A DNA stretch of 64,000 nucleotides from Stieleria bergensis (lineage in GTDB: Bacteria > Planctomycetota > Planctomycetia > Pirellulales > Pirellulaceae), in NCBI GenBank assembly GCA_007745635.1, contig CP036272.1:2455146-2519145 (forward strand), read 5' to 3'. Below the pieces are notes generated by a model that was not told the DNA's origin, did not search any database, and was given only the letters and a program-made list of their open reading frames with translations. Each line of letters begins with the position of its first letter. Within the stretch, counting starts at the first letter, position 1. Made by a program: the position numbers and the translations under genes. Shown here piece by piece: positions 49,040-63,801 of this stretch.

Positions 49040-49350
49040 AAGCGCAGCGAACGATTGTGGCGTGGCGGGTGGACCATGAGCGATATTCTAGCGTTAATCC
49101 GCCTAGGCTGCAGACAGACTGGCAGCGGGAAGTGACGGTCCTGGGCAGGCAACCGACCGCGATCGCGTTTGCCTTAAAAGTTGCAAACGCATCCAGCCTA
49201 AATGTTTTGGCGCCACGCGAAAAATCTGTCTGGTTTTGGGCGGTGGCTTAAAGCACATCAATCAGTCCAAGCCATCTCAAGTTAGAATAACGCAAGCATT
49301 TTTCGTTTCCGTTTCACGCTGAACCAGCACAACAAGAGTTGAACCCGCAC
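49040..49350. other. Divergent intergenic region with palindrome
   Basis: 311 bp between the CNT gene (minus) and the secreted-protein gene (plus). It contains an 8-bp-arm inverted repeat at 49165-49190 and no recognisable small gene. Promoters could not be assigned with confidence. Confidence 0.45.
49165..49190. promoter_or_regulatory. Inverted repeat GCGTTTGC-N10-GCAAACGC, candidate operator
   Basis: Arms at 49165-49172 and 49183-49190 are exact complements around cttaaaagtt. The half-site text GCAAACG resembles that used by LacI-family regulators such as PurR, but in the opposite (everted) arrangement. It lies 126 bp upstream of the CNT start and 161 bp before the gene at 49351. No T-tract supports a terminator. 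Regulator identity is inference. Confidence 0.45.
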
Positions 49351-49983
49351 ATGAAAACAATCTTTTCTTTCGTCTTTGCGTTTTTGTTGATTGGAAATGC
49401 TGCCTCTGGTGAAGAATTCCATGATGATTTCCGCGATGCCAAGCTTCAGGGACGATTGGCGGAACGGGGCGCGTGGCAGTTTGGTGATGGAGTTGCCAGT
49501 TGCGTTTGTGACCCTGACCTCTATAAACAATTCAAGAATCATGGTCCGATTTTGAAGTGGCCGCGCAAGTTCAGTGACGCCAAAATCTCATTCCAGATGA
49601 AGGCAGAAGATTGTGGACGTGTCGTTTTCACGCTAAACGGTGACGGACATGTGTTTCGTGTCACGCTTGCCGACGAACGAGAAGACGCACCTGCGGGGCA
49701 ATCGAAGGTGCCGACGCGAGTCATTGCCTGGGCCACCAAGTCGTCGAAACAGAATAAGGGAGACACGATCAAACCCGCAGGGATGCCGGACCTTGCCCGC
49801 GTGAATGGGAAATGGGTACCGGTTCAGTTGGCTGTGGTCGGCAAGCGAGCGTTGTTGACCATTGGCGATTTTCAAACTGAAATCGATCATGCAGCCCTCG
49901 CACGCGAGAAGAGCATGGTCATGCTGACCTTCGCCCATGGCAAGCTCTCTGTCCGAGACTTCAGGATGAGTGTCTCTGAATAA
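49351..49983 (+). CDS. Secreted beta-sandwich protein, unknown
   Basis: ATG at 49351 gives 210 residues with a signal peptide (~1-19, ending NAASGEE). The mature part looks like a single concanavalin A-like beta-sandwich (FHDDFRDAKLQGRLAERGAW, PRKFSDAKISFQMKAEDCG, VVFTLNGDGHVFRVTLAD) similar to the DUF1080/3-keto-disaccharide hydrolase type, but I do not see a catalytic set. A TTG 12 bases upstream is an alternative start. The ECF sigma gene lies 166 bp downstream, behind an inverted repeat, so co-transcription is possible but not implied. Confidence 0.7.
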   Translation: MKTIFSFVFAFLLIGNAASGEEFHDDFRDAKLQGRLAERGAWQFGDGVASCVCDPDLYKQFKNHGPILKWPRKFSDAKISFQMKAEDCGRVVFTLNGDGHVFRVTLADEREDAPAGQSKVPTRVIAWATKSSKQNKGDTIKPAGMPDLARVNGKWVPVQLAVVGKRALLTIGDFQTEIDHAALAREKSMVMLTFAHGKLSVRDFRMSVSE

Positions 49984-50028
49984 CTGATGCACTCTCTCAG
50001 TTGAATCACAACACGTCACCAGCTGATC

Positions 50029-50063
50029 AAGGTTGCCATCGCTAACGAGCAGACAGCAACCTT
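50029..50063. promoter_or_regulatory. Inverted repeat AAGGTTGC-N19-GCAACCTT upstream of the sigma gene
   Basis: Perfect 8-bp arms at 50029-50036 and 50056-50063. It sits 46 bp after the stop of the gene at 49351 and ~87 bp before the sigma ATG. There is no run of T after the second arm. It may act as an operator or as a weak terminator that separates the two units. Confidence 0.45.
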
Positions 50064-50149
50064 CATGCGTTGACTCGAAAACGCTCGGCAATGTCTTCTT
50101 TTTCATGCTTTTGTGGCAGGTTTTGGGATTGGGGGCGAATAAAGCAGGT

Positions 50150-50692
50150 ATGGAACATCCAATACCAAGATTCGAGCTCAGCGAGCACCAGTTTCTGGCG
50201 CTGCTGGTTCGTGCCGAGCCTGTTTTACGAGGATACGCGCGGACGCTCGTACCCGATTGGGATTTGGTGGATGAGGCAATTCAAGAAGCCACCATCACGA
50301 TGTGGCAAAAACGAGATCAGCTTGAAAGCGAAGATGGGTTTGTGCCTTGGGCCCGAGTCATTCTTCGCTTCAAGTGTCTCCGGCAATTGGAGAAACTCCG
50401 CTCACGGCAACCGATCTTGAGCGATGAAGTGTTGGAGAAACTCGCGGAGCGGTCGGAGAGACGCGATCCGATGGAACTGTCTGTCCGTGAGCGAGCGTTC
50501 CACAGCTGTTTCACACAGTTTTCACGCGAGCATCGCGAATTGTTGCTCGCGCCTCATCACTCACTCGATTCGGTGGTTCGTTTGGCTGAGCGGAGGGGAA
50601 AGTCACCCAACGCGCTGTATAAGCTCTTGGCGCGACTCCGCAATCAACTCACCGAGTGTGTTCACTTGCGCATTTCGACGGAGGCAAAGTGA
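50150..50692 (+). CDS. ECF sigma factor, planctomycete FecR-linked type
   Basis: ATG at 50150 gives 180 residues (the open frame upstream is not coding). Region 2: YARTLVPDWDLVDEAIQEAT and TMWQKRDQLESEDGFVPWAR; region 4: SREHRELLLAPHHSLDSVV with the helix-turn-helix ERRGKSPNALYKLLARLR. The extra linker and the RLAERRGKS text are typical of the planctomycete/verrucomicrobial ECF subfamily that pairs with FecR-type membrane anti-sigma factors (TIGR02989-like). It should direct transcription of its own operon or related genes. The stop is 2 bases before the next ATG. Confidence 0.9.
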   Translation: MEHPIPRFELSEHQFLALLVRAEPVLRGYARTLVPDWDLVDEAIQEATITMWQKRDQLESEDGFVPWARVILRFKCLRQLEKLRSRQPILSDEVLEKLAERSERRDPMELSVRERAFHSCFTQFSREHRELLLAPHHSLDSVVRLAERRGKSPNALYKLLARLRNQLTECVHLRISTEAK

Positions 50693-50694
50693 GC

Positions 50695-52098
50695 ATGGAC
50701 TCCCATGAATTGATCTGCCGTTATTTGCATGGAGTCGCCTCCGAAGAAGAGGTGCGTGAGCTCGATCGCCGACTGCGATCGGACCAAGCACTCCAGGAGG
50801 ACTTTCTTGTTCAATCGGAACTGGATGCGAATCTTCGCCAGGAAGCCCAGTTGGGATCGCGGGACGACGTCCAGCAAGCATCTTCAGACGAATCAGCCGA
50901 TCACTGGCAACAGAACCATCGCGGTCGCCGCATGACGGTTCGGATCTTGCTAGCGCTGGCCACCGTGGCGCTGATCGCGGTCGTCACGCAAGCCTTTCTC
51001 TTGCCAGGCTCACCCCAGGAAATCATCACCGTCACCTCTGTAAGCGGCCCGATTGCTTGGACGGGGGACGGAGGCCATGTGACCAACGCGATTGCAGTAG
51101 GAGAAAAACTGCCTGGCGGGACGCTGGAATTGTTGTCGCCCGATGCCTCTGTTGAGTTTGCGTTTAAAGATCGATCCGCACTGACGCTTGCGGGGCTCTC
51201 GGCGATGACGATTTCGAATGATTCACTGAATGCTGGATCCGAAATGCAAAAGAAGTTGTATCTAAGGCATGGCAGACTTTCGGCTCGTGTGCAAAGACAA
51301 CCGCGCGGTCGCCCGCTGATCGTCAGCACGAACACTGCGGAGTTGACTGTTCTGGGAACGAAGTTCAATGTCGAAACGTCGCCGGAATCAACGCGGCTGA
51401 CGGTCAAGGAAGGAAGCGTTCGACTCAAGCGGTTGCCCGACGGGAAAGAGGTCGACGTGCCAGCTCAGCAATGCGTATTTGCATCGCTTGAAAATCAAAA
51501 CGCCTTGCCGCTGCAATCGCTCAATTCACCAGTGAATCGTTGGCAGAGCGAGCTGCGCCAGGATGTCGTCATGGGGAAGTGGACTTCACGTCTTTGGGGC
51601 ATTGGTGTGAAGCTCAAGAAGGCAGTTGCCAGTGGCAAAATGTCCGAACAAGAAGCACTGAAGGTCTATAAGCAGACCGCCCATCTCAACGATTCGGCTG
51701 GCAGTGTTTGGACTGTGTCTTCACCCGTTGGAGCACTGCTTGTTCTGTCCGTTGGTCGTTCACAGGACCATCCGGTCCACTTGCAGGCAACGTCCAGCAT
51801 CCTCGTGCGGGGACGGGCGTTTTCGCGGACCCCTGTCAAAATCGGACTCAACGTCGAGTTCCCAGATGGCGGTTTTGCAGGCAAGTACAGCACAACCATC
51901 CCCGCTAGCCAGTTTGCCGTGGGTGAGGAGTTTGAAATGGAGCTTCCGCTTAACAAATTCCGGGACGATAGGAAGACAGATGTCTCTCCGGTTGGATTAG
52001 AGCTGACTGACTGGTGGTTGGTTGCCAAATCTTCCTCCGGAAAATTCGAAATCACCAGTGTCGAATTGGCAAACGCACCCCTGAGGGATAAACCATGA
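50695..52098 (+). CDS. FecR-like transmembrane anti-sigma factor
   Basis: ATG at 50695 has GGAGG ten bases upstream; a GTG at 50689 would overlap the sigma stop. In 467 residues: a cytoplasmic anti-sigma part (1-~78; LHGVASEEEVRELDRRLRSD, SELDANLRQEAQ), one membrane helix (~81-103, VRILLALATVALIAVV), and a periplasmic FecR domain (~150-260; SVEFAFKDRSALTLAG, TAELTVLGTKFNVET, SVRLKR). At ~310-327 lies AVASGKMSEQEALKVYKQ, a helical motif shared with the next two proteins. It probably holds the sigma factor at the membrane until an outside signal acts. Its stop overlaps the next ATG (ATGA). Confidence 0.88.
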   Translation: MDSHELICRYLHGVASEEEVRELDRRLRSDQALQEDFLVQSELDANLRQEAQLGSRDDVQQASSDESADHWQQNHRGRRMTVRILLALATVALIAVVTQAFLLPGSPQEIITVTSVSGPIAWTGDGGHVTNAIAVGEKLPGGTLELLSPDASVEFAFKDRSALTLAGLSAMTISNDSLNAGSEMQKKLYLRHGRLSARVQRQPRGRPLIVSTNTAELTVLGTKFNVETSPESTRLTVKEGSVRLKRLPDGKEVDVPAQQCVFASLENQNALPLQSLNSPVNRWQSELRQDVVMGKWTSRLWGIGVKLKKAVASGKMSEQEALKVYKQTAHLNDSAGSVWTVSSPVGALLVLSVGRSQDHPVHLQATSSILVRGRAFSRTPVKIGLNVEFPDGGFAGKYSTTIPASQFAVGEEFEMELPLNKFRDDRKTDVSPVGLELTDWWLVAKSSSGKFEITSVELANAPLRDKP

Positions 52099-53621
52099 AG
52101 ACTCGTTTTTACTTTGCTTTTCTGATCGCTGTTTCATTCGTTAGTTCAGCATCGCGAGCTGACGACAGTTGGAATCAATTTCGTGGTCGAAACGGCGATG
52201 GCATTGCCCGGCAAAGCAAGCTGCCCATTGAATTTGATGAAGCCAGAAACGTGCGGTGGAAGGTGGCGATTCCCGATTCAGGCTGGTCGTCCCCAGTGGT
52301 TTGGGAAAACGAGATCTGGTTGACCACTGGTAGTGACCAAAAGAAAGAAGCCCGGGCAATCTGCATCAACCTTCAGACGGGCGAGGTGATCAAGAGCATC
52401 AAGGTGTTCGAGATGATCGAACGAAAAGTCGATCCCGCTTACGTTTTCGACTCGCCGCATCTGAACAGTCCGGCGACGCCAACTCCGGTGGTTGAAGAGG
52501 ATCGCGTCTACGTGAGTTTTGGTTCGCAGGGGATCGCCTGCTTGGATCGCAAGTCCGGTGCAAAGATCTGGGAACGCCGCGACTTGCGGGTCTATCAACC
52601 TGTTCGCCAGGGATCGTCGCCAATCGTCGATGAGAAGAATCTGTATGTGGCATTTGATGGTACCGACCAGCAATTCTTTATTGCGATCAACAAAACGACG
52701 GGGGCCACGCGGTGGAAGGTCGATCGCAATGTTGAAACGGATTGGCGAGAAACGCTTTCTGAACGCGGACTGTCCCCGAAGAAAGGAGGCAAGCCAAATG
52801 ACAACAAGAAATCGTTTGCAACCGCCACCCTAATCGATGCTGGAGGTCGCCGTCAGCTGATTGCGCCCGCAGCTGAAGCAATCATTTCCTATGATCCGGA
52901 AACAGGTGATGAACTGTGGCGCACCATCCACCCAGGCGGTTTCAATGTGGCTGCGCGGCCGATCTATGCTAATGGACTCGTCTACGTGTTTACGAGTGGA
53001 CTCAATCACTCATTGATCGGAATCCGACCCGATGGAACGGGAAATGTGACGGACTCCCATGTTGTTTGGTCCACCTTCAAAAGTACTCCAGCGATTCCCT
53101 CGCCCGTTCTCGTTGATGGGTTGCTCTTCATGGTGACCGCCAAGGGCGGGATTGCTCGCTGTCTTGATGCCAAGACCGGTCAAGAGATTTGGAAGAAGCG
53201 ATTGGGGGGCGACCATTGGGCGTCACCGATACTCGCTGATCACAAACTTTATTTCAGCAGTAAACAAGGTGAAGTGAAAGTGCTTGAAGCAACACAGCAC
53301 GAACCTCGATTACTGGCATCGAATGAACTCAATGCCGAATTCATTGCCTCGCCTGCTGTTGCCGGCGACATGCTGATTCTCAGGTCCACGACTCACCTCT
53401 ATTGCGTATCAGCCGGGTCGCACCGGACTGAGGCACAGATTGCAGCAGACATTGATCCCAAACGAAATGCCGGGAAACCGGAGCCCGCGAAAAAGAAAAC
53501 AGACGTTCAAGCGAACAGTCCCCTCGCCGCACTCGGTGCACAACTAAAAGCCATGGTCGCAGCTGGCAAGTTGACGCCCGAGGAAGCGATCGAATTGTTT
53601 CAGTCAGCTCAAGGCAAGTGA
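52095..53621 (+). CDS. PQQ-like beta-propeller, part of the sigma operon
   Basis: The start at 52095 overlaps the anti-sigma stop by four bases (ATGA). The 508-residue protein has a signal peptide (~1-22, ending ASRADD) and opens SWNQFRGRNGDGIARQSKLP, followed by blades with repeated Trp/Gly motifs (CLDRKSGAKIWERRDLRV, INKTTGATRWKVDRN, SYDPETGDELWRTI). The last ~40 residues are a separate Lys/Pro linker and the helical motif LKAMVAAGKLTPEEAIELF. It is a paralogue of the protein at 40638, which lacks that tail. Position and coupling tie it to the sigma/anti-sigma pair; a PQQ cofactor is unproven. Confidence 0.88.
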   Translation: MKTRFYFAFLIAVSFVSSASRADDSWNQFRGRNGDGIARQSKLPIEFDEARNVRWKVAIPDSGWSSPVVWENEIWLTTGSDQKKEARAICINLQTGEVIKSIKVFEMIERKVDPAYVFDSPHLNSPATPTPVVEEDRVYVSFGSQGIACLDRKSGAKIWERRDLRVYQPVRQGSSPIVDEKNLYVAFDGTDQQFFIAINKTTGATRWKVDRNVETDWRETLSERGLSPKKGGKPNDNKKSFATATLIDAGGRRQLIAPAAEAIISYDPETGDELWRTIHPGGFNVAARPIYANGLVYVFTSGLNHSLIGIRPDGTGNVTDSHVVWSTFKSTPAIPSPVLVDGLLFMVTAKGGIARCLDAKTGQEIWKKRLGGDHWASPILADHKLYFSSKQGEVKVLEATQHEPRLLASNELNAEFIASPAVAGDMLILRSTTHLYCVSAGSHRTEAQIAADIDPKRNAGKPEPAKKKTDVQANSPLAALGAQLKAMVAAGKLTPEEAIELFQSAQGK

Positions 53622-53673
53622 GCTGCGTTCCTATGCTTTTGCAAAACACTTTCGAATCCCCAAAGAGTTTACC

Positions 53674-54861
53674 ATGAAAATAGCTACCCTGTTGCTCCTG
53701 ATTCCATTTGCTCTGTGTTGTGAATTCGCTTTCGCGCAAGACAAGTCCACCGCCCGTTGGGAGTCGGCGTACGAGCGACTGCTGGAGGCCGATCCGAGTG
53801 TGCAAAAGAAAATTGAAAGCGGACAAGCCACCAAGGAAGACGTGATCAATTGGTTGAAGAACCAAAATGGAAAAACCGCCAAGCAGCAAGATCGAAACAA
53901 GCCAACCCCAGACGCTGGCAATTTGAAAGGCAAGAGTGCTTTCCAGAGCAAGCTTGATGAAATGGTGAAGGCCGGCAAACTGTCGAAAGAAGACGCGGCC
54001 AACCTGGCGGCAACGATGAACACCAAGGCGGCTGGATCAGAAGAAGCGAACCCACCGAAGAAAGTGGATTGGGACGCCGAATATGAAACGTTGATGGCCG
54101 ATCCAACCGCGCGTGCTTGGATTGAAAAGAAGCAGGCTTCGAAAGCTCAGGTGATCGAATACCTTAAGAACCAAGCCGGGGCACAAGCTAAAAAAGGCCA
54201 AGCCACTGGCGGAGTAAAGACCAAGTTAGGAGCGAAAACCAAAACAGGAGCTCGGCCTGGCAGTTTCAATTTCTACGCCATTGTCATCGGTCGCTTGAAG
54301 TCGAAAGACATCGAACTGGGTGAAATGGAAATCGATGTCGATTATGTGATCAGCAGCCAGCCACAACTGAATGCCAAACTCATCGGGACGCGGGTGAAGT
54401 TGGTCGGTGTTTCGGGGCAATTTCTGGATTCCTTGCTGCGGATCAAACGTGGCGAAACGATCAAAGTCCGCACCGGCGATTTCAATCCTAAAGCTGGCGT
54501 TCTCGGTTTTGGTTACAAGTTCCATGTGCTTGAACGCACCTCTCCTTTCCGGCCTGGAGACTTCGGTGTCCCGCCTAACGAGTTTCGAGGCTTTCAGGGA
54601 GAACTTGTGGGAAAGGTTGTCGAGGCGAGTGGCTACGAGGTGCTGTTAGAGGTTGCCGAGAGCCTGCCCGCTGAGGGCAGCCAAGCCACGGACGCGGCCT
54701 GCATTGTTGGCAAACGAATCCGCGTCGCTGGCTTCTTTGGTGGGCATCGTGATGCCTATGAAGCGATCAGCGCTGGCGACAAGATTCGAGTCAGTGTCTC
54801 TCATCGCAACAAGCAAAGCGATGCGGTGGATGTCACCGAAACGTTGGAAATGGATCAGTAG
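53674..54861 (+). CDS. Secreted repeat protein with SHOCT-like helical modules
   Basis: A 395-residue protein with a signal peptide (~1-22, ending EFAFAQ). Two similar modules, at ~28-66 (WESAYERLLEADPS, IESGQATKEDVINWLKNQ) and ~132-168 (WDAEYETLMADPTA, IEKKQASKAQVIEYLKNQ), flank a shorter one at ~93-115 (LDEMVKAGKLSKEDAANL). The C-terminal half (~190-395) contains two related beta-rich domains: GTRVKLVGVSGQF...GETIKV and GKRIRVAGFFGGH...GDKIRV. I know no name for the family. It is 52 bp after the PQQ gene and 25 bp before the cytochrome gene. Confidence 0.75.
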   Translation: MKIATLLLLIPFALCCEFAFAQDKSTARWESAYERLLEADPSVQKKIESGQATKEDVINWLKNQNGKTAKQQDRNKPTPDAGNLKGKSAFQSKLDEMVKAGKLSKEDAANLAATMNTKAAGSEEANPPKKVDWDAEYETLMADPTARAWIEKKQASKAQVIEYLKNQAGAQAKKGQATGGVKTKLGAKTKTGARPGSFNFYAIVIGRLKSKDIELGEMEIDVDYVISSQPQLNAKLIGTRVKLVGVSGQFLDSLLRIKRGETIKVRTGDFNPKAGVLGFGYKFHVLERTSPFRPGDFGVPPNEFRGFQGELVGKVVEASGYEVLLEVAESLPAEGSQATDAACIVGKRIRVAGFFGGHRDAYEAISAGDKIRVSVSHRNKQSDAVDVTETLEMDQ

Positions 54862-54886
54862 TGTCAACGCAGGCAGGTGTTACTCG

Positions 54887-57508
54887 ATGAAGCGACTGTT
54901 CATTCTATTCGTTTTGCTCGGCTCTCCTCTCGGAGCCGAAGAAGCGGAGGTCACCAAGGCCCTCCGCCCAGCATCGCAGCGTTTTGCTGAACGCGACACG
55001 CGAGCGGTTCCGGACTTTCAACGACATGTGGTGCCGTTGCTGGGACGGCTTGGGTGTAACTCCGCGAAATGTCATGGGTCTTTCCAAGGGCAAGGCAATT
55101 TGCGTTTGTCGCTGTTTGGATTCGACTTTCAGTCCGACCACAGAGCGCTGCGGGCGGATTCGCACTCAGGAAGCGGTCCGCGGTTGCGAACAGGCGATCC
55201 CGAAGACAGCCTGATCGTAATGAAAGCCACCGAACAGACCGATCACGAGGGCGGTCAGCGATTCGCAACGGGGACATGGGAGCATCATCTGTTGCTTCGC
55301 TGGATCGAATCAGGGGCCACTGGGCCCGTCCTGAAAGGGGCTCACAAGGAGGCGTCAGCCGTGGCCGGAAATCCTCCAGCGCGGGAGTCTGAGCAGTCTG
55401 CCGACGCACTGTTTCGAGAAAGAATCCAGCCAATCTTCGAGGATCATTGCTACGAATGTCATGGCTTTCGATCAAGCAAAGGCAACTTCTCGTTAAGCAA
55501 TCGCGAGGCCTTGCTGGCCGGTGGCGATACAGGACCGGCCGTTGTGCCCGGGAATGCTAACGCGAGTCTTTTGATGAAAGCCATTGAGTTTCGCGATGAT
55601 GGGCTGCAGATGCCGCCCAGCGGAAAGCTTCCCAGCGAATCGATTGCGGTTTTGAAGCAGTGGATTGACAGTGGGGCGTCGTGGCCGGACGCTGTCGACA
55701 GTTCCCCGCAAGCAACCAATCAAGAACTTGTCGCGCTTCATTGTCAGCCAAGTGAGATTCTCTTCCGAGAGGCTGGGCAGGAGGTGCAACTCAAGATCAT
55801 CGCGGAGTGGAAGGACGGAACACGAGAGGACGTAACCTGCCTTTGTCGTTTTCAAACCAACGAGGGTGAGATTGTGCGTGTTGGCAGCAACGGGCTGGCC
55901 ACTTCCACGGGAGAAGGCGACACTCACGTCATTGCCTTGTACGATAACGGGGTCGCAGCGATTCCTGTGCTACGGCCATTGGCACCTATGGCACAGCCAA
56001 ATCACCAGGCCGCCGAGGGGCCTCGAGCGAACGGGGTCCATCCCATCGACGGTTTCGTCAACGCCAAGCTCGGTAAACTTGGCCTCGTTGCATCCGAACC
56101 TTGTACAGACGCCGAGTTTCTTCGTCGTGTCAGCATTGATCTGACTGGCACACTTCCTGCGCCCGACGAGGTGCTGCAGTTTCTGAATGATCAATCAAAG
56201 GACAAGCGGTTACTCAAAATTGAGGAACTTCTGGAGCGACCCAGTTACGCTGCTTGGTGTACGAACAAGTTGTGTGATTTCACGGGATGTCATCCAAAGT
56301 CAATCAGTAGCCTGTTGGAGGTCGCCAGGGAAGATGGCTATGTCAAAGCCTCGCAATGGTACGAGTGGATCTATCAGCGCGTGCAACAGAACCAGCCCTA
56401 CGATCAAGTGGTTGCTGGTTTGATGTTGGCCGATCTTTCGGGACGAAGCGGCAGCATGCCATCTTTCTGGACGCGGCAGAGTCTGGAGGAGCCGAAGGAC
56501 ACCGCGATGTCGGTTGCTCACGCGTTTTTGGGGATTCAGTTGCAATGCGCTGAATGTCATAAACATCCCTTTGACCAATGGACCCAAGCAGATTTCAATG
56601 ACTTCTCTCGGTTCTTTGATTCTGTGACGAGGACCAAAACGCGATCGGTGACAGAAGAGGTCATGACGCTCGGTCTCCTTCGTAGTGGCCAAGTCAAGCT
56701 TGCTGTCGGAGACGATCCTCGTAAGCCCATCATGGATTGGATGCAGGATCCAGATAATCCATGGTTTGCCCGAGCGTTCGTGAATCGAGTGTGGGCTGGA
56801 TACTTTCATCGTGGGATTGTTGAGCCGCCAGATCAGTTTACGCCTGCGAATCCGCCTAGCCATCCGCAGTTGCTTGATTGGCTTTCTAGAGAATTTGTGA
56901 ACAATGGTTATGACATGAAATGGCTTCACCGGCAAATTGCCAGCAGTCAAACGTATCAGAGAAGCTGGAGACCAACCGAATCGAATCGCAATGATCATCG
57001 TAACTTTAGCCGAGCGATTCCACGACGGATTCCTGCTGAAGTCGTTTACGATGGGGTCAAGCAAGTCACGGCAGCTCCGGAAGATCAAGGTGAGGTGCGT
57101 GCAAACTTGAGACGCCGGGCATCTGGGCATTTGTCGATGCGGATGGCAGGGACCCACGCAATGAAGGTCTTTGGCAAACCCGATCGTTCCATCGTATGCG
57201 ATTGTGAGCGAGTCAATCAGCCGACCTTGTTACAGGCAATCTTCACCCAGAACGATCCGTTGATGCGAATGCGTTTGGCCGACAGCGGTTGGTTGATCGA
57301 GATTGAAGATGCCGAAGAAGCCGAAGAGCGCTTAGATACCGGTTTGCTGATCCAGCAAGTCTGGCTGCGAACCGTCGGCCGAATGCCGAGTCAAGCGGAT
57401 CGAGCGCGAGCCAAAAAGCACCTTAGCGAATCACCGACGATCGCCGAGGGAATGGCTGATTTGCTGTGGGCGATGATGAATTCAAAGGAATTCTTGCTCA
57501 ATCACTGA
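54887..57508 (+). CDS. Double-cytochrome DUF1549-DUF1553 protein with Ig-like domain
   Basis: ATG at 54887 (873 residues) follows a purine-rich tract and opens a signal peptide ending PLGAEEA. Two heme sites: the unusual C57-x4-C62-H63 (CNSAKCH) and the planctomycete cytochrome CYECH at 188-192, with EMPP-like LQMPPSG distal text. An Ig-like (Big2-type) domain follows (~275-360), then DUF1549 (~385-560; FLRRVSIDLTGTLPAPDEV, a CAECHKHPFDQW block) and DUF1553 (~620-870; WFARAFVNRVWAGYFHRGIV, shown only in part). It differs from the two proteins at 17927 and 22454 by the CX4CH site, the Ig-like domain and no carbohydrate-binding insert. Confidence 0.88.
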   Translation: MKRLFILFVLLGSPLGAEEAEVTKALRPASQRFAERDTRAVPDFQRHVVPLLGRLGCNSAKCHGSFQGQGNLRLSLFGFDFQSDHRALRADSHSGSGPRLRTGDPEDSLIVMKATEQTDHEGGQRFATGTWEHHLLLRWIESGATGPVLKGAHKEASAVAGNPPARESEQSADALFRERIQPIFEDHCYECHGFRSSKGNFSLSNREALLAGGDTGPAVVPGNANASLLMKAIEFRDDGLQMPPSGKLPSESIAVLKQWIDSGASWPDAVDSSPQATNQELVALHCQPSEILFREAGQEVQLKIIAEWKDGTREDVTCLCRFQTNEGEIVRVGSNGLATSTGEGDTHVIALYDNGVAAIPVLRPLAPMAQPNHQAAEGPRANGVHPIDGFVNAKLGKLGLVASEPCTDAEFLRRVSIDLTGTLPAPDEVLQFLNDQSKDKRLLKIEELLERPSYAAWCTNKLCDFTGCHPKSISSLLEVAREDGYVKASQWYEWIYQRVQQNQPYDQVVAGLMLADLSGRSGSMPSFWTRQSLEEPKDTAMSVAHAFLGIQLQCAECHKHPFDQWTQADFNDFSRFFDSVTRTKTRSVTEEVMTLGLLRSGQVKLAVGDDPRKPIMDWMQDPDNPWFARAFVNRVWAGYFHRGIVEPPDQFTPANPPSHPQLLDWLSREFVNNGYDMKWLHRQIASSQTYQRSWRPTESNRNDHRNFSRAIPRRIPAEVVYDGVKQVTAAPEDQGEVRANLRRRASGHLSMRMAGTHAMKVFGKPDRSIVCDCERVNQPTLLQAIFTQNDPLMRMRLADSGWLIEIEDAEEAEERLDTGLLIQQVWLRTVGRMPSQADRARAKKHLSESPTIAEGMADLLWAMMNSKEFLLNH

Positions 57509-57535
57509 GACAGAGAAGCAGTTGAGGAGAGAACC

Positions 57536-58810
57536 GTGAACACAGCTTTTAACAGGCGTCACTTTATCCAAGTCGGTACCTTGGGGGGACTAACGCTTAG
57601 TCAGTACCTCGGGCTTCAAGCCTTGGCATCCGACGGCGCGCAAAAACGCTCGGCGATTTTTGTGTTCTTGGAAGGCGCGCCTTCCCATCAGGATACGTTT
57701 GACCTAAAACCAAACGCACCGGTCGATGTTCGCGGAGAGTTCAAACCGGTTCAAACAACGGTTCCGGGACTTCAGATTTGCGAGCATTTGCCGATGCTGG
57801 CCACTCGCGCCCAGAAGTACGCGATCATTCGAGGCATCACACATAACGTCGCCGATCATGGACTTGCAAAAAAGTATCTGCTCACTGGAAACAAGGCTTC
57901 ACAATCGGTCAGCTATCCCGAGTACGGCAGTGTGGTCAGTCACGAGTTTCCGTCAGCGACTCACTTACCCTCCTACGTTTCAATCGACGAGTCCTTTGTG
58001 GGGCCCGGATATTTGGGTTCACGGTTCAGTCCATTGACGGCTGAAAAGCCCCGCCATGGTGCGCCGTATTCTGTAAGAGGCATCACGCTTGAAGATGGAC
58101 TGACTGTTGAGAAGTATCGATCTCAGAAGCAACTGCTTGACGACTTAGACGTCGCCTTTGCCGGTTTTGAAAACTTGGACGATCAGGTGCGTGGTCTGGA
58201 TCGATTTTCCAAACAAGCCTTTGATATGATCAGTTCGCCCAAAGCGCGAGCGGCCTTCGATCTTTCTCAGGAAAAGCCTTCGGAAAGCGACCGATTTGGA
58301 AAGCATGAATTTGGACAGTCGCTCTTGCTGGCTGCGCGACTCATTGAAGCTGGAGTGCACTTCGTCACGGTGAGGCTGCGTCCCGCAGAATTTGACTTTG
58401 ACACGCACCAGGATAATTTCTCGCGCCTGCGTACCTTGTTGCCGCCATTCGACCGTGGGCTTGCTGCATTGCTTGATCGACTTGAGGAACGCGGTCTTCT
58501 GTCGTCAACCGCAATCATGGCCGCGGGCGAATTCGGACGCACTCCCAAGATCAATAACGCCGGTGGCAGAGACCATTGGGCCAGAGCCATGTGTGCCCTG
58601 ATGGCTGGCGGCAGCGTTCGCGGGGGCCAAGTGATCGGAGCAACCGATGCGACCGCCGCCGAACCAGCGTCGGTGGGATTCTCCCCTGACGATTTGGCCG
58701 CTTCCTTCTTTGCCAACGTCGGCATTTCACCGAAGACGGAATTCCAATCCAACGTCGGACGACCCATGACGTTGGTCCGAGACGGTCATCCGATTCGTGG
58801 ATTGCTCTAA
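57536..58810 (+). CDS. DUF1501 protein, end of the sigma operon
   Basis: GTG at 57536 has GAGGAG seven bases upstream. The 424-residue protein has a twin-arginine-like signal (NRRHFIQVGTLGGLTLSQYL) and DUF1501 text: FVFLEGAPSHQDTFDLKPNA, VRLRPAEFDFDTHQDN, AAGEFGRTPKINN and GGRDHWARAMCALMAGG. It is shorter than the DUF1501 proteins at 21015 and 25642 and belongs to a different subgroup (WARA instead of AFTAW). It lies 27 bp after the cytochrome gene and closes the unit. Confidence 0.9.
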   Translation: MNTAFNRRHFIQVGTLGGLTLSQYLGLQALASDGAQKRSAIFVFLEGAPSHQDTFDLKPNAPVDVRGEFKPVQTTVPGLQICEHLPMLATRAQKYAIIRGITHNVADHGLAKKYLLTGNKASQSVSYPEYGSVVSHEFPSATHLPSYVSIDESFVGPGYLGSRFSPLTAEKPRHGAPYSVRGITLEDGLTVEKYRSQKQLLDDLDVAFAGFENLDDQVRGLDRFSKQAFDMISSPKARAAFDLSQEKPSESDRFGKHEFGQSLLLAARLIEAGVHFVTVRLRPAEFDFDTHQDNFSRLRTLLPPFDRGLAALLDRLEERGLLSSTAIMAAGEFGRTPKINNAGGRDHWARAMCALMAGGSVRGGQVIGATDATAAEPASVGFSPDDLAASFFANVGISPKTEFQSNVGRPMTLVRDGHPIRGLL

Positions 58811-59052
58811 CGCTGTTGGCAAGCACAGTGGATGTGAGGCGATCCAAACCGGCCAGAAGATCCATCAGATTCAAGTCCGCGTGCCAGCAAACACGACGTT
58901 AGCGTTGACGGTTGCGTCCGCCTGGGCTCATGCGTTCGTTTCCCAGGTTGGTTGAATGGCTGCTTTGGCCAGCGTTTCCAGCCTTGGCGACACGCGTGAG
59001 AGTTCGATTCCGCGAACAGCATCTTGTGCGGGATCGTTCTCTGTCGAGTTGG

Positions 59053-60948
59053 CTACGACTGCTCGTTGAGTGTGTTTTCGTACCACACGAGATTCATGCT
59101 GTCGTGACCAGCGATCAAGAGGTCCAAGTCGCCGTCACCGTCCATGTCGATCGCTCGAATGTCGTAGGAGCTTTGATCGACATCGATCACATGTCGCGTG
59201 AAATGTCCTTGGCCATCGTTCTGATACCAAATCGCGGTTCCGTCGCTGGCGCGTCCGCAGGTTGCGAGGTCGACATCACCATCATCATCAAGGTCAACGG
59301 TTGCCAAGCAGTGTGGGCCTAAGATGTTTGGGTCGATGGTGAATTCTCTGAAGTCGGGGCCCTTGAACCACAGCACTCCCTGGTCGTGGCCACGCGTCGC
59401 GACTAAGTCCATGTGTTCGTCCCCGTTGATCTCCACCGGGTGAATGTTCGTTGCTCCGGGATGTTGATCAGAGAGCAAGTGTTTCTTCCATGGCACCGAT
59501 CCATCGGCGGGTTGTTCCCACCAAGCGAACCATTCGCCGTTTGGAAAGGCTTCGCCTCCCTTGGCACCACAGGAGATGTCTGGAATGCCATCGCCATTGA
59601 TGTCAGCGATGCCGGTATAGTGTGATGCCCCGGGTGCATCGCCGTCAGCAAACACGTGTCGGATCCAGTGCTTGGCTGTGTGAGGGCTTGATGGGACTTC
59701 TAACCAAGTCAAGGAATTCGGCACCGAGGTGGTGGTCTGATCACGACCAGAATTCGCGATCAGATCCGGCTTGCCATCTTGATTGACGTCTCCGCTAATC
59801 AAGCAGTGTGTGCCCAGGATTTCATCGTCAATGGTGCGATAGGTCCATGGTTGACCGGAGCATGGATCTGCAGGGCACTCCAGCCAGAAAACCGTCAGGT
59901 TAGAGCCACAGAAATCAAGGTCTCCATCCTGATCAACGTCCATCAGGCAACTGTGGATGCAACTGGGACGCGGTTTGTTTCTGGATAGGCCGGGCTTGAT
60001 GACATGCAGCGTGTGCTGAGTCCAATCGGGGCCCTTGAACAAGACGACCCGGCCATCAAAAGACGAGATGATGTCGATGTGTCCGTCGCTGTCAAAATCA
60101 TTCGCCACAGCCGAGTTGATCTGAGAACGAGATTCCGGCAGCACGACGTGCTTTTTCCATCCCGTCGACGAGTTGGCTGCCTGCTTAGCCGCTGGCTTGG
60201 ACTGTGCAAACATCCATGACATGAAATCAGGCTCTCGATCGCAGCGATCACCCGTGAACTGAGTGACACCGTTTGCAGCACCAGGGATCATTTTTCCCGA
60301 CGAATTGTGTCGGTCACCCTTCAAGACGGTCAACTTCATGTTGCCCTTTAGACGCTTGAGTTCGTTGAAGACAGCGAGATCCTTTGCGATCGGGCAGACG
60401 GTGTCTCGATCGCCGTGAAAAGCCCAGATCGGAATGTCTTTGATTTTTGCAGGGTCGATGAAGTCTTCCGTTCGTGGCCTTCCGCTGCCAGCGGAGGGTG
60501 CGGCGGCGGCAAAATAATCTGGCGCAAGCTGGATAAAGATGTAAGTGCCATGACCGCCCATGGAGTGACCCATGACATAAATGCGATTCATGTCGACTGC
60601 TGGTAACGTTTTGATCAGCGCTTGGCTCCGCTCCAAATCTTGCTGATCCCACAGAGAGTCCGCTTGTGGGGCAACCACATAGCAGGGGAACTCCTTTCGC
60701 CGTTTGGGTTCGGCAAGCTGTCGGTTCCAGTCTTTGAGTTGCTTTTGATTATTCGTCCCCACTCCGCCAGCGCCGTGAAGCGACAGGATGACAGGGTACT
60801 TTTGGTCCGCATCGAAATCGATGGGTTTCATCACCCGAACCGGTAGGCCTTGAAAGACTTGGGGCTCATACAGGTCGAACAGTTTCTGTTGCGCCGTTGC
60901 GCTACTGCAGCCCAACAAAATTGCGAAGGCAATGATTCGAGAAAGCAT
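59053..60948 (-). CDS. Alpha/beta hydrolase (PHB-depolymerase type) fused to FG-GAP/VCBS repeats
   Basis: The 631-residue protein begins with a short signal ending LLGCSS, a possible lipobox with Cys at 14. The N-terminal half (~35-245) is an esterase: LSLHGAGGVGTNNQ (oxyanion), GHSMGG with Ser129, and a later DGDRDT-like HGDRDTVCPI carrying the acid. The C-terminal half (~280-631) has about seven calcium-binding FG-GAP/VCBS loops: DSDGHIDI, DQDGDLDF, NQDGKPDL, NGDGIPDI, DDDGDVDL, DGDGDLDL. The usual pattern for FG-GAP is a beta-propeller. The fusion suggests a secreted or surface-bound esterase with a large binding platform. Confidence 0.88.
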   Translation of the reverse strand: MLSRIIAFAILLGCSSATAQQKLFDLYEPQVFQGLPVRVMKPIDFDADQKYPVILSLHGAGGVGTNNQKQLKDWNRQLAEPKRRKEFPCYVVAPQADSLWDQQDLERSQALIKTLPAVDMNRIYVMGHSMGGHGTYIFIQLAPDYFAAAAPSAGSGRPRTEDFIDPAKIKDIPIWAFHGDRDTVCPIAKDLAVFNELKRLKGNMKLTVLKGDRHNSSGKMIPGAANGVTQFTGDRCDREPDFMSWMFAQSKPAAKQAANSSTGWKKHVVLPESRSQINSAVANDFDSDGHIDIISSFDGRVVLFKGPDWTQHTLHVIKPGLSRNKPRPSCIHSCLMDVDQDGDLDFCGSNLTVFWLECPADPCSGQPWTYRTIDDEILGTHCLISGDVNQDGKPDLIANSGRDQTTTSVPNSLTWLEVPSSPHTAKHWIRHVFADGDAPGASHYTGIADINGDGIPDISCGAKGGEAFPNGEWFAWWEQPADGSVPWKKHLLSDQHPGATNIHPVEINGDEHMDLVATRGHDQGVLWFKGPDFREFTIDPNILGPHCLATVDLDDDGDVDLATCGRASDGTAIWYQNDGQGHFTRHVIDVDQSSYDIRAIDMDGDGDLDLLIAGHDSMNLVWYENTLNEQS

Positions 60949-61185: not shown

Positions 61186-63801
61186 TCAACGACTTCGGAA
61201 CGTTTGGCTGTTGGCAACGCCCAGGACCAGGTCACGAAGTCCATCGCCGTTCTGAGCGCATGCGGTCGCAATTTGCTTGATCTCTTGGTAATCGAGCGAG
61301 GTCATGGAACGCCCCGTCGCGTAGGTCAACAATTTTTCGGTAAGCGTCTCGGCAAATCGGTTTTTTCGTGACACGAGAATCTTTTTGAGCCCGGTTTCAT
61401 CTTCAAACGACTCCCCTGACGGAAGTTGTCCAGAACCATCCACAGCGATTCGTTTTCCTGGTCGGCCGGGGTATTGTTGTCGGAACCCACCAATGGGGTC
61501 ATAGAACTCTAATGCAAAACCAGCGGGATCGATTTTTCGGTGACAATCCGCGCACGCGGCGACCGTTCGATGCTTGTCAAGTTGTTCGCGAATCGTCGTC
61601 GTGCCTCGTGTATCAGGCTCAATCGCAGGCACATCAGGCGGCGGTGGTGGTGGTGGCGTCCCCAAGATGTTCTCCAGTACCCACATGCCGCGTACAACCG
61701 GCGACGTTTCGATGCCATTGGCAGACAGTGTGAGTACACTTCCCTGTCCCATTAGTCCGCCCCTGCGGTGTTCAGGCTTCAGAGCGACCCTGCGAAGTTG
61801 TTCACCATGAATGTTTTCGATGCCGTAATGCTGTGCAAGCACATCGTTGACGAAGGCGTAATCGCTATCCAGTAAGTTGACAATTGAGCGATTGTTCTTC
61901 AGTAAGTCCGCGAAGAACATTCGCGTCTCTTGCTTGAATAGATCCTCAAGGCGATCGCGATAATAGCTTGCAAAAGCCTTGGGGTCCGGAGGCATCGATC
62001 CCAGCGTATTGATTCGCAGCCAAGTGTCTGTGAAGTGCTCGACAAAGGCGTTGGACTTTGCGTCCCCGAGCATGCGCTCAACCTGCCTCTGCAGTCCGGC
62101 TTTGGTGGCCAGTTGGCCTGACTCAGCAGCGTGAAACAATTCATCATCTGGCATGCTGCTCCAAAGGAAATACGAGAGCCGAGATGCGAGTTCGTAGGAT
62201 GCAAGCGTGGTGCCAGTCTCCTCGTTGCCTTCGTCTAAGTAAAGGAAACGCGGCGAGGTCAAGATGGCTGCCAAGCCAAGCTTAAGTGCTGCGGCGTGAG
62301 AGTCACCCTTGGCGATGCGCTGTTGAATGAATTGGACATAATGGTCCACGGATTCCACCGTGACGGGACGACGAAAGGCACGGCGGGCAAACTTTTGGAC
62401 GACAGATTGAAGGGCCAGTTTAGAAGCATCGGTTTGTGTGCCGTATAACAGTTGGTGACTGGCCGGCGGCCACTGGTCAATCTCTGGGCCATTCAGATCG
62501 AGATTGTAGACTCGGACCCGAGGCCCACGGTAGACCTCCGAGAGCAGCGGGTTGTTGTCGTTCTTTGCAAGTCGCGCTACCAACGCTTGAGCCTCAGGAT
62601 CGCCCAGCAACGCGGCGTCACGCTCAGTGGTGGTGCTGCGAACGACTTCCGGGTGATGCTTTTCCGCGACCAGACGGATGTTGCCTTTGGAGCTGACTCC
62701 ATTGGTCCAGCTAATAAAGGGGACGGCACCCTTGTTTAGCCAGACGCGTTGCGTGAATTCCTGTGGCTGACCATCGGGTAACTCCCAAATGGCACTCAAG
62801 CGTCGCTGGTCGGCGGCGTTCTTCACCAGCAGCTTTGCCTCTGGTGCAACCCAGAGGGCGAGTTTGAGGCGTTGAGTTTTGAAGCGATCGAACTCGCGAT
62901 GGTCGTAACCATGATTGAGTCGGTTTGCAGCGGCCGCGCGAACTTTGATCGTGTACCAACCTTCTGCGGGCGCTCCGCCCGCTCGCGCGAGTGAAGGCAC
63001 AAAGTTGGGATGACGCTCGCTGGGTTGCCCGTGTCCAATTTCCAAATAGTCGTTGTCAACAATCAGTCGCCAAGTCACCGGCGCACGCTGATAGGAATGA
63101 ACTCCATTAAAGTCGCTTCCATGAAAGTGCCATTCCTTGGGCGACGGCTGTTGGACGTCGAAAGAGGTTGCAGCGTCCACCGCTGCTTCGGCGACCTCCA
63201 GATAGCGTTCCAGCTGTTGCTCAGACAGCGAAAGGGATTCACCCTGATTATCAAATCCTTCTTTGATGGCGTCGACGGGAAAGTCCGATGTGCGATCGAA
63301 GAACTCAGGCGTCAGTTGCAGAATGTCTCGCATGGTGTTGGCGTACTCGAACCGGTTCAGCCTGCGCATGACGGTTGATTGAGTGGCTCCGGCCTCCGCT
63401 AACTGTGATAGATAATCGGTTAGCGATGAAACGAAGTGCTTTGTCTGGGATTCCGTTGGTCGGGCAATCTTGCTTTTGCTCGGCGGCATATCGCCTCGGT
63501 TGATTGCATCGAGTGCTTCTTCTAAGAGGAGTGCGGCATCGTCGTCAGCCGAAATGACTGCTGGCAGTTGATCGAGCCGCCGATCGCCCTTCTGGCTCGT
63601 TTCACCATGGCACTGATAACAAAACTGCTGGAAATACTTGGTGACTGAGGGGGCCAACTTGTGTTCGTCCGCGGTGGCGCCTTGGCTGGTGGCTGGCAAT
63701 AGCAACGCAAGAAGAACCGTTTGCAGGCTTCGTTTGGCGTGGCGGAGCGAAAATGCCAGCCACGATTGGTCAGCGATGGCGTTTGATATTTGTCGATTCA
63801 T
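61186..63801 (-). CDS. PSD-type cytochrome DUF1587-DUF1592-DUF1588-DUF1585 protein
   Basis: The 871-residue protein has a signal peptide (ending TSQGATA) and heme motif CYQCH (61-65). The domains run DUF1587 (MRRLNRFEYANTMRDILQL, ~145-215), a carbohydrate-binding-like insert (~240-420), DUF1595, DUF1592 (YELASRLSYFLWSSMPDDEL), DUF1588 (GLMGQGSVLTLSANGIETSP, then CADCHRKIDPAGFALEFYDP with a second CxxCH) and DUF1585 (LTEKLLTYATGRSMTSLDY). These proteins are exported and always stand beside a DUF1552 gene, as here. The biochemical role is unknown. The ATG is 2 bp from the DUF1552 stop. Confidence 0.93.
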   Translation of the reverse strand: MNRQISNAIADQSWLAFSLRHAKRSLQTVLLALLLPATSQGATADEHKLAPSVTKYFQQFCYQCHGETSQKGDRRLDQLPAVISADDDAALLLEEALDAINRGDMPPSKSKIARPTESQTKHFVSSLTDYLSQLAEAGATQSTVMRRLNRFEYANTMRDILQLTPEFFDRTSDFPVDAIKEGFDNQGESLSLSEQQLERYLEVAEAAVDAATSFDVQQPSPKEWHFHGSDFNGVHSYQRAPVTWRLIVDNDYLEIGHGQPSERHPNFVPSLARAGGAPAEGWYTIKVRAAAANRLNHGYDHREFDRFKTQRLKLALWVAPEAKLLVKNAADQRRLSAIWELPDGQPQEFTQRVWLNKGAVPFISWTNGVSSKGNIRLVAEKHHPEVVRSTTTERDAALLGDPEAQALVARLAKNDNNPLLSEVYRGPRVRVYNLDLNGPEIDQWPPASHQLLYGTQTDASKLALQSVVQKFARRAFRRPVTVESVDHYVQFIQQRIAKGDSHAAALKLGLAAILTSPRFLYLDEGNEETGTTLASYELASRLSYFLWSSMPDDELFHAAESGQLATKAGLQRQVERMLGDAKSNAFVEHFTDTWLRINTLGSMPPDPKAFASYYRDRLEDLFKQETRMFFADLLKNNRSIVNLLDSDYAFVNDVLAQHYGIENIHGEQLRRVALKPEHRRGGLMGQGSVLTLSANGIETSPVVRGMWVLENILGTPPPPPPPDVPAIEPDTRGTTTIREQLDKHRTVAACADCHRKIDPAGFALEFYDPIGGFRQQYPGRPGKRIAVDGSGQLPSGESFEDETGLKKILVSRKNRFAETLTEKLLTYATGRSMTSLDYQEIKQIATACAQNGDGLRDLVLGVANSQTFRSR

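What the first reader, a model, noticed from the sequence alone, without database searches (positions are those of the whole stretch)
50150..58810. Sigma/FecR-controlled operon linking a PQQ propeller, a new repeat protein and a cytochrome-DUF1549/1553/1501 module
Six genes run in one direction with junctions of 2 bp, an ATGA overlap, and gaps of 52, 25 and 27 bp: ECF sigma, FecR-type anti-sigma, PQQ propeller, unknown repeat protein, cytochrome/DUF1553 and DUF1501. Known: FecR-linked ECF systems respond to envelope signals; DUF1549/1553/1501 proteins are exported and uncharacterised. Inferred: a self-regulated envelope system whose structural genes include redox-type proteins. This is the best candidate here for an undescribed system.
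Basis: partly seen in the sequence, partly recalled or inferred. Interest (0 to 1): 0.78.

Follow-up and report, generated by a model that had tools for sequence, protein, structure and literature searches.

The report
Envelope operon with swappable control switches
In planctomycete bacteria a recurring set of apparently exported proteins (a cytochrome, a partner of unknown function and a previously unnamed adaptor-like protein) is encoded together, while the genetic switch in front of it has been exchanged several times during evolution, which offers a natural test bed for how bacterial sensing circuits are rewired.

Summary
The six-gene operon is real, at the stated coordinates: TIGR02989 ECF sigma, FecR-type anti-sigma, BamB/PQQ-like propeller, an unnamed protein ("REP4": helical hairpins plus two OB folds), a PSCyt1/PSCyt2/PSD1 protein with three heme motifs, and DUF1501. 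The order recurs in 21 non-redundant operons compared, mostly Pirellulaceae. REP4 lies directly before the cytochrome gene in 39 of 40 loci; the 40th ends at a contig edge.

Sigma plus FecR anti-sigma domain falls into at least seven types (one clade rejected, p-AU 2.6e-83), in one pair with a breakpoint at the FecR membrane helix. Elsewhere a BlaI/M56 switch fused to REP4's OB domains replaces it. (2) The three largest sigma types each have their own promoter-like motif just upstream (window 50115-50142). (3) FecR ends in a jelly roll resembling carbohydrate-binding modules; a helical hairpin recurs in propeller, REP4 and, more weakly, FecR.

ECF control of a PSD1 protein has been proposed in print. 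The papers searched showed neither module nor head exchange. The chemistry is unknown.

The parts
50115..50142 (+). promoter-like motif of this sigma type, GGCAGGTT-N13-CGAATAA, 7 bp before the ATG of the sigma gene
   Evidence: Same motif and 13-bp spacing upstream of the sigma gene in L062 and L105, the other two type-1 operons. Exact matches in the 7.1-Mb genome: 2; the other lies antisense inside an ORF that I take, from recall, for DUF1552-like.
50150..50692 (+). ECF sigma factor, TIGR02989 family
   Evidence: 135.4 bits, cut-off 124.55
50695..52098 (+). FecR-type membrane anti-sigma factor
   Evidence: PF04773 54.4 bits; model mean pLDDT 81.8
50695..50862 (+). N-terminal anti-sigma domain (residues 1-56), exchanged together with the sigma factor
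   Evidence: sigma identity against this domain's identity r = 0.91 over 210 operon pairs
50926..50997 (+). presumed membrane helix (residues 78-101); in the L062/L102 pair the exchange breakpoint lies at its start
   Evidence: helix in the model but mostly under pLDDT 50, hydrophobic by eye, no membrane predictor run; breakpoint
51022..51522 (+). periplasmic FecR beta domain (about residues 110-276)
51523..52095 (+). C-terminal jelly roll (about residues 277-467) resembling carbohydrate-binding modules
51589..51681 (+). SHOCT-like helical hairpin (residues 299-329) inserted in the jelly roll
   Evidence: related to the propeller hairpin by profile in 11 of 20 relatives
52095..53621 (+). apparently exported BamB/PQQ-like beta-propeller protein
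   Evidence: PQQ_2 98.7 bits; BamB is the closest solved sequence
53517..53609 (+). C-terminal hairpin-type stretch of the propeller protein
   Evidence: used as a seed of the profile
53674..54861 (+). REP4: previously unnamed, apparently exported protein
   Evidence: no Pfam or NCBIfam family above cut-off; model
53743..53877 (+). REP4 helices of hairpin 1 (residues 24-68)
53938..54021 (+). REP4 hairpin of the type shared with the propeller protein (residues 89-116)
54070..54192 (+). REP4 helices of hairpin 3 (residues 133-173)
54265..54543 (+). REP4 OB fold 1 (residues 198-290)
54589..54858 (+). REP4 OB fold 2 (residues 306-395)
54887..57508 (+). apparently exported c-type cytochrome with CX4CH (residue 57) and CX2CH (residues 188, 554) motifs, PSCyt1, a stretch similar to Teneurin-like chains of the PDB (281-360), PSCyt2 (DUF1549), PSD1 (DUF1553)
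   Evidence: a second CX4CH at residue 463 is seen in the window's copy only
57536..58810 (+). DUF1501 protein with an N-terminal RRHF motif
   Evidence: 317.4 bits; EFGRTP...GRDH in 14 of 14 operons whose gene was taken, window included

Best explanation
The locus is a self-regulated envelope operon made of an exchangeable sensing head and a fixed effector back end. Off state: the FecR anti-sigma domain holds its ECF sigma at the membrane. Signal: the CBM-like C-terminal domain of FecR responds to a ligand (most likely a poly- or oligosaccharide) or to the propeller-REP4-cytochrome assembly, which it may contact through helical hairpins. FecR is then cut or opened, sigma is freed, reads the motif at 50115-50142 and transcribes the whole operon. 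Output: a cytochrome with three heme motifs (PSCyt1/PSCyt2/PSD1) and a DUF1501 protein. REP4 couples that pair to the regulator: without fusion here, by fusion to the propeller in other operons, and by fusion to the M56 protease in BlaI/M56-controlled versions. Shown by computation: gene order, constant back end, exchanged heads, head-specific motifs, predicted folds, recurrent hairpin, fusions. Inferred: binding, saccharide as signal, proteolysis, complex formation, autoregulation, export. The chemistry of the output is unknown.
For: Back end: REP4 directly before the cytochrome gene in 39 of 40 loci. The 15 of 149 family genomes with this cytochrome at E <= 1e-150 (six candidates scored per genome) all have REP4 at E <= 1e-40; the 16th such REP4 genome, G110, has the cytochrome gene cut by a contig end. 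Fusions: propeller-REP4 in 6 of 21 operons; M56-REP4 in seven loci (L078, L121-L126), with BlaI directly upstream in six. Head exchange: over all operon pairs SIG identity averages 30% (16-94) while propeller averages 69, REP4 OB part 64, cytochrome 66, DUF1501 78. Sigma one-clade test p-AU 2.6e-83. L062 against L102: FecR beta 95%, SIG 29%, with DNA similarity (86% over 4277 bp) starting at the membrane helix. Motifs: 3 of 3, 7 of 7 and 4 of 5 operons examined of the three largest types. Sensor: CBM-like neighbours. Of ten proteins that I chose from behind other sigma genes of this genome, four are sulfatases, three PSCyt/PSD proteins and one a 3-keto-disaccharide hydrolase.
Against: The CBM resemblance is structural only; no ligand site was identified, Pfam gives no CBM hit in 13 FecR relatives, and the best structural row for that part is not a sugar binder (7zkq). 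With the propeller-built profile the hairpin is hit in only 11 of 20 relatives' FecR (E 0.002-8) and in 17 of 20 propellers and 17 of 20 REP4 proteins; L116 and L072 have neither propeller nor REP4 hit and L073 has none of the three, so it cannot be essential everywhere. Promoter patterns were written after seeing the alignments; none was defined for five operons (L114, L102, L116, L072, L073), L074 has no match and L107 could not be examined. No transcript, binding or phenotype data. The operon is absent from most relatives (REP4 at E <= 1e-40 in 23 of 241 family genomes), so it is accessory. I lowered this confidence from 0.55 to 0.5 on recounting the hairpin hits and the structural rows.
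Confidence: 0.5

Rival explanations
1. An ordinary planctomycete ECF/FecR operon: the genes are co-transcribed but the products do not form one assembly, and the hairpin is a common helical motif of planctomycete exported proteins.
For: The genome has 45 TIGR02989-like sigma places (12 over the cut-off) and 64 PSD1 places, and other sigma genes stand before other cargo. SHOCT-like hairpins are a known Pfam kind. The hairpin is missing by profile from several relatives.
Against: REP4 next to the cytochrome in 39 of 40 loci, propeller-REP4 and M56-REP4 fusions, and all 74 hairpin hits at E < 10 among 986 neighbourhood ORFs being propeller, REP4 or REP4-like, FecR or one inserted operon gene.
Confidence: 0.28
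2. Envelope-stress or cell-surface signalling of the FecI/FecR kind in which FecR reads damage or a protein partner, not a sugar.
Against: None of the six genes is a TonB-dependent receptor, and many structural neighbours of the C-terminal part are carbohydrate-binding modules. In the window's own genome the sigma/FecR type found in L073 sits before a sulfatase gene.
Confidence: 0.3
3. A quinoprotein chain: the propeller is a PQQ dehydrogenase that feeds electrons to the cytochrome.
For: Weak local similarity to quinoprotein dehydrogenases; c-type heme motifs in a neighbouring gene.
Against: The best solved matches are BamB, no pqqE is over the cut-off in the genome, and the dehydrogenase models score far under their cut-offs.
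Confidence: 0.08
4. The sigma factor and anti-sigma domain only evolve fast; no exchange took place.
For: Anti-sigma contact residues are reported to vary even within groups (PMC7406223, passages).
Against: Sigma is 76% identical between window and L062 but 26% between window and L102, although the FecR beta domains of L062 and L102 are 95% identical. Operon sigmas fall among other operons' sigmas (p-AU 2.6e-83). L073's sigma and FecR are 83% and 75% identical to a pair before a sulfatase gene in the window's genome.
Confidence: 0.03

Closest known systems
Planctomycete ECF sigma gene suggested to regulate a PSD1/PSCyt2 gene (R. baltica RB10049 and RB10051; Studholme et al. as cited in PMC2754498, passages read)
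   Same: ECF sigma proposed to control a DUF1549/DUF1553 protein
   Different: No adaptor, propeller, hairpins, head exchange or BlaI/M56 control in the passages read; orthology was not tested here
FecI/FecR cell-surface signalling (PupR structure 6ovk)
   Same: ECF sigma, FecR-type anti-sigma, matching periplasmic fold
   Different: No TonB receptor in the operon; C-terminal part a jelly roll with an inserted helical hairpin; cargo is cytochrome and DUF1501, not a transporter
SigI/RsgI polysaccharide sensing in Clostridium thermocellum (PMC12203970, passages read)
   Same: Membrane anti-sigma with a C-terminal carbohydrate-binding-type sensor; works alike if a sugar is the signal
   Different: The sigma here is ECF (TIGR02989), not SigI, and the periplasmic part is FecR-type
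BlaI/BlaR1 (M56) penicillinase regulation, for the alternative head
   Same: BlaI-type repressor (PF03965) and M56 peptidase (PF05569) genes adjacent
   Different: No penicillin-binding domain found in the three fused proteins scanned; tandem REP4 OB domains stand at that end
DUF1501 genomic clusters and PSCyt/PSD families in PVC bacteria (PMC4452313, passages; PMC5615132, passages and section 13)
   Same: Same domain families; PSCyt2 and PSCyt3 genes reported as usually next to two families of unknown genes
   Different: REP4 is not described in the passages read

Membership tests
TIGR02989 ECF sigma (Rhodopirellula/Verrucomicrobium family) | score over the curated cut-off | tested here: met
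   135.4 bits against 124.55
FecI/FecR cell-surface signalling | FecR domain anti-sigma next to an ECF sigma | tested here: met
   PF04773 54.4 bits; PupR-like fold
FecI/FecR cell-surface signalling | TonB-dependent receptor with signalling domain in the operon | tested here: not met
   none among the six genes nor the four flanking genes scanned; a receptor elsewhere in the genome was not searched for
RsgI-type sensing | carbohydrate-binding-type sensor domain | tested here: inconclusive
   CBM-like fold by VIA-align; no sugar binding tested, no CBM family hit in Pfam
RsgI-type sensing | SigI-type sigma partner | tested here: not met
   sigma scores over the TIGR02989 ECF cut-off
PSCyt1/PSCyt2/PSD1 cytochromes | the three Pfam domains and c-type heme motifs | tested here: met
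DUF1501 | Pfam PF07394 | tested here: met
   317.4 bits
PQQ-dependent dehydrogenase | PQQ supply and dehydrogenase-type propeller | tested here: not met
   no pqqE over cut-off; scores far under the dehydrogenase cut-offs; PQQ uptake from outside cannot be excluded
BlaI/BlaR1, for the alternative-head loci | BlaI repressor and M56 peptidase | tested here: met
   PF03965 108.4 bits in L078; PF05569 58.9-82.9 bits in L078, L124, L126, L128; the other loci by phmmer to L078 only
BlaI/BlaR1, for the alternative-head loci | penicillin-binding sensor domain | tested here: not met
   no such Pfam hit in L078, L124 and L126 proteins; REP4 OB domains there instead
SHOCT domain | Pfam score over cut-off | tested here: not met
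   best SHOCT-like hits 12.9 bits (REP4) and 16.7 bits (propeller) against 27

The most novel reading that the evidence does not exclude
A plug-and-play signalling operon: one conserved envelope effector (REP4, cytochrome, DUF1501) that has repeatedly been given new switches, at least seven sigma/anti-sigma-domain heads each travelling with its own promoter and a BlaI/M56 protease head, with REP4 as the common adaptor that lets any head read the effector.
Probability: 0.45. Interest if true: 0.8.

Novelty: new variant of a known kind. Interest (0 to 1): 0.63.

Why it matters
Planctomycetes carry dozens of PSCyt/PSD genes of unknown purpose (64 PSD1 places in this genome). A small, recurrently linked set with a newly recognised partner protein gives a defined unit to purify and knock out. 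The repeated exchange of sigma/anti-sigma-domain heads, apparently with their promoters and in one case with a breakpoint at the membrane helix of FecR, is a natural experiment on how signalling specificity is rewired. It also suggests where anti-sigma factors can be cut and joined without losing function.

Tried and rejected
Sigma-70 promoter and terminator scan of 49900-59100: nothing above shuffles. Search for a wider regulon of the type-1 motif: with up to 2 mismatches 19 sites against 21 for the backwards control, so no sign of further targets; the one other exact site and the one one-mismatch site lie inside ORFs that I take, from recall, for DUF1552-like. Search for the insertion site in the window's genus: only short, scattered DNA matches, so no empty site could be read. 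Solved-structure search: no DUF1501 relative at E <= 1; for the cytochrome a stretch at 281-360 shared with two Teneurin-like chains and one weak hit. Foldseek for the FecR model could not be run because the machine was busy; VIA-align served instead. Folds absent from the VIA lists are not excluded. A loose regular expression for the hairpin gave matches in other proteins too and was not used; the profile scan was. Two planctomycete papers looked for (PMC3497475, PMC7286433) are not held. Paper searches on which the statement that the searched papers did not show the module or the exchange rests; only listings and the passages named were seen.

L106, L115, L117 (cut by contig ends), L119 (no sigma/FecR recognised) and L120 (no sigma, FecR or propeller recognised) are not among the 21 operons. 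Weaker OB-profile hits (above E 1e-20, L136 and L137) were left out, and a few of the weaker or fragmentary hits (such as those on G008:C523 and G063:C937) were not fetched as neighbourhoods. Weak point: ORF starts in my gene calls are the longest possible, so N-terminal ends are approximate.
Full report
Observation. The window lies in a 7.1-Mb single-contig genome with 64 PSD1 places and 45 TIGR02989-like sigma places, 12 of them over the cut-off. The fourth gene, called REP4 here, is single-copy in the genome. Export of the propeller, REP4, cytochrome and DUF1501 proteins is read from their N-termini by eye; no signal-peptide program was run.

Conservation. REP4 was searched in 149 genomes of the family at E <= 0.001 (30 with a hit) and later in 241 at E <= 1e-40 (23 with a hit). 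A profile search of 392 genomes of the phylum (four candidates scored per genome) gave 20 with a hit: the window's own at full length, C-terminal-part hits in two more genomes of this family and three of one other family of the class, and 14 weak ones (E 1e-9 to 1e-5) elsewhere. Named genome contigs gave 19 loci: MAGs titled Mariniblastus, Blastopirellula, Rubripirellula, Rhodopirellula, Pirellulaceae, Planctomycetaceae, Planctomyces, one titled only bacterium and one Verrucomicrobia. That these genera and the window's family are Pirellulaceae is recall plus matching contig lengths. Gene calling with my own script gives 21 non-redundant operons with sigma, FecR, propeller and REP4; the cytochrome could be taken in 16 and DUF1501 in 14, the rest being cut or missing at contig ends. 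In six operons propeller and REP4 are one gene (L072, L073, L074, L075, L114, L118). Inserted genes occur in L103, L104, L105 and L112. In the 149 genomes the 15 with this cytochrome at E <= 1e-150 (six candidates scored per genome) all have REP4 at E <= 1e-40; the sixteenth such REP4 genome, G110, has the cytochrome cut by its contig end. None of the 13 other same-genus genomes listed has REP4 at E <= 1e-40, so the operon is accessory; two of them, G138 and G148, carry the M56 version described next (L123, L128).

A second control system. A profile of the REP4 C-terminal part finds it (E < 1e-20) in 40 non-redundant loci; the next gene is the cytochrome in 39 and the contig ends in the other. 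The loci were found with REP4, not with the cytochrome. In L078, L121, L122, L124, L125 and L126 a BlaI-type gene is followed by one gene that joins an M56 domain to two REP4 C-terminal units, then cytochrome and DUF1501; L123 has the fused gene without BlaI recognised, and L128 has BlaI, M56 and REP4 as separate genes. Pfam confirms Penicillinase_R in L078 and Peptidase_M56 in the four proteins scanned, with no penicillin-binding domain in the three fused ones. Other loci have REP4-cytochrome without sigma, FecR or BlaI recognised directly upstream (L079, L080, L127, L129, L131, L132). The back end thus occurs under two unrelated kinds of control.

Exchange of heads. Across the 21 operons sigma identity averages 30% (minimum 16) and the anti-sigma domain 27%, while FecR beta averages 49, the CBM-like part 39, propeller 69, REP4 OB part 64, cytochrome 66 (16 operons) and DUF1501 78 (14 operons). 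By sigma identity the operons fall into seven types: window/L062/L105; L103/L104/L107/L108/L110/L111/L113/L071; L109/L112/L118/L074/L075; L116/L072 (39%); L102; L114; L073, with at most 30% between types. Sigma and anti-sigma-domain identities go together (r = 0.91, 210 pairs), sigma and REP4 hardly (r = 0.29). A tree of the 21 sigmas with 30 other sigmas of the window's genome needs 8 changes of label, at least 5 forced by starred branches, and one clade for the operon sigmas is rejected (p-AU 2.6e-83). The sharpest case is L062 against L102: FecR beta 95%, CBM-like part 80%, propeller 84%, REP4 88%, but sigma 29% and anti-sigma domain 35%; DNA similarity of 86% over 4277 bp begins at about the start of the FecR membrane helix. 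L109 against L110 shows the other kind: sigma and the whole of FecR differ (18%; 41% and 34% for its two periplasmic parts) while propeller and REP4 are 86% and 96% identical. L073's pair is 83% and 75% identical to a pair that precedes a sulfatase gene in the window's genome. The direction and mechanism of exchange are not known.

Promoter motifs. Right upstream of the sigma gene, type 1 (window, L062, L105) shares GGCAGGTT-N13-CGRATAA in 3 of 3, type 2 shares GSGGTAAC-N13-[CG]TGC..T in 7 of 7 examined (L107, whose contig starts inside the gene, was not examined), type 3 TGTCAGGAT-N14-CGTTYTA in 4 of 5. In 2.53 Mb of window and locus DNA (both strands, duplicate contigs included) the patterns occur 4, 10 and 5 times, which by my arithmetic equals these sites plus the duplicate copies of the same contigs. 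The patterns were written after seeing the alignments, and several type-2 operons are close relatives, so this shows specificity, not an independent test. In the window's genome the type-1 motif gives 2 exact sites and no excess over the backwards control at 2 mismatches (19 against 21); the other exact site is antisense within an ORF that I take for DUF1552-like. A private, one-operon sigma is the simplest reading.

Hairpins. A profile built only from 11 propeller C-termini, run without filters on 986 ORFs of the loci, gives 74 hits at E < 10 (50 without duplicate contigs): propeller 27, REP4 or REP4-like 30, FecR 15, and 2 in an inserted operon gene (L065/L105); none in the 197 ORFs of L078-L080 and L121-L132. 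Some of the propeller hits are the seeds themselves. Per operon (20 besides the window) propeller and REP4 are each hit in 17 (fused genes counted for both) and FecR in 11, E 0.002-8; in the alignment of 13 FecRs several hairpin columns are invariant, including in FecRs without a profile hit. Conversely the FecR C-terminal profile, hairpin included, picks up REP4 and propeller hairpins. L116 and L072 have no propeller or REP4 hit and L073 none in any of the three. That hairpins join separate proteins where fusions are absent is inference.

Effector. The cytochrome has one shared CX4CH and two CX2CH motifs in 16 of 16 operons whose gene was taken, window included; DUF1501 keeps EFGRTP...GRDH in 14 of 14, while an RRx[FLIV] pattern near the N-terminus was found in 8 of 14 (some starts are uncertain). 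That DUF1501 belongs to the alkaline-phosphatase-like group is recalled, not tested. The propeller is BamB-like and no pqqE is over its cut-off.

Mechanism. I commit to a self-regulated head (FecR releases sigma on a signal, most likely a saccharide or the assembly itself) that drives an envelope complex in which REP4 links cytochrome and DUF1501 to the regulator (0.5; lowered from 0.55 on checking, because the hairpin is hit in only 11 of 20 FecRs and the best structural row of the sensor part is not a sugar binder). Steps shown are sequence, predicted-fold and comparative results; binding, proteolysis and chemistry are inferred. Ten proteins that I chose from behind other sigma genes of the window's genome include four sulfatases, three PSCyt/PSD proteins and one 3-keto-disaccharide hydrolase with a cytochrome c domain; a FecR-like gene was recognised between sigma and that protein in L083, L087, L089, L092 and L094 only. 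RseP cutting of FecR in E. coli (PMC8144685) and the key role of the N-terminal domain of a Leptospira FecR-like protein (PMC13118517) were seen only as titles and abstract starts in a search listing; RsgI sugar sensing was seen in passages (PMC12203970).

Novelty. ECF control of a PSD1/PSCyt2 protein was suggested in print (PMC2754498, passages), and DUF1501 clusters and PSCyt neighbourhoods are known (PMC4452313, PMC5615132, passages and one section). The searches listed no paper that I recognised as describing REP4, the head exchange, the BlaI/M56 version or the recurrent hairpin; most subscription journals are not held. Hence a new variant of a known kind.

Noticed in passing
L063 4853-12116 (same contig as L102): A second, divergent locus next to the operon: FecR, two REP4-like 301-aa proteins with C-terminal hairpins, a shorter cytochrome (718 aa) and DUF1501. 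Three sigma ORFs lie within about 3.5 kb (L063 11921-15440), a plausible place for head exchange.
   Followed up: partly
L112 6412-8184: An acyltransferase plus ankyrin gene lies between FecR and the propeller gene of this operon.
   Followed up: no
L103 9120-9929 and L104 4415-5251: A 269-278-aa protein lies between propeller and REP4 in two operons (the L103 copy was scanned and has no Pfam family over cut-off); in L105 the place is taken by a 414-aa protein with a C-terminal hairpin and CX2CH motifs seen by eye.
   Followed up: partly
L083-L089, L092, L094 (window's genome): Behind other sigma genes of this genome lie sulfatases, PSCyt/PSD proteins, a 3-keto-disaccharide hydrolase with cytochrome c, or an ankyrin/propeller protein, which hints at saccharide-related control in general (ten proteins chosen).
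   Followed up: partly
window 59053-60948 (-): An alpha/beta hydrolase joined to FG-GAP repeats, convergent to the operon.
   Followed up: no
window 61186-63801 (-): A PSCyt1/PSCyt3/PSD2-PSD5 protein of the other planctomycete cytochrome architecture lies 2.4 kb beyond the operon.
   Followed up: no
window 49339-49983: A small protein with no Pfam hit, upstream on the same strand; in the two closest relatives, L062 and L102, other genes lie upstream of the sigma gene, so it is probably not part of the operon; its homologues were not searched for.
   Followed up: partly
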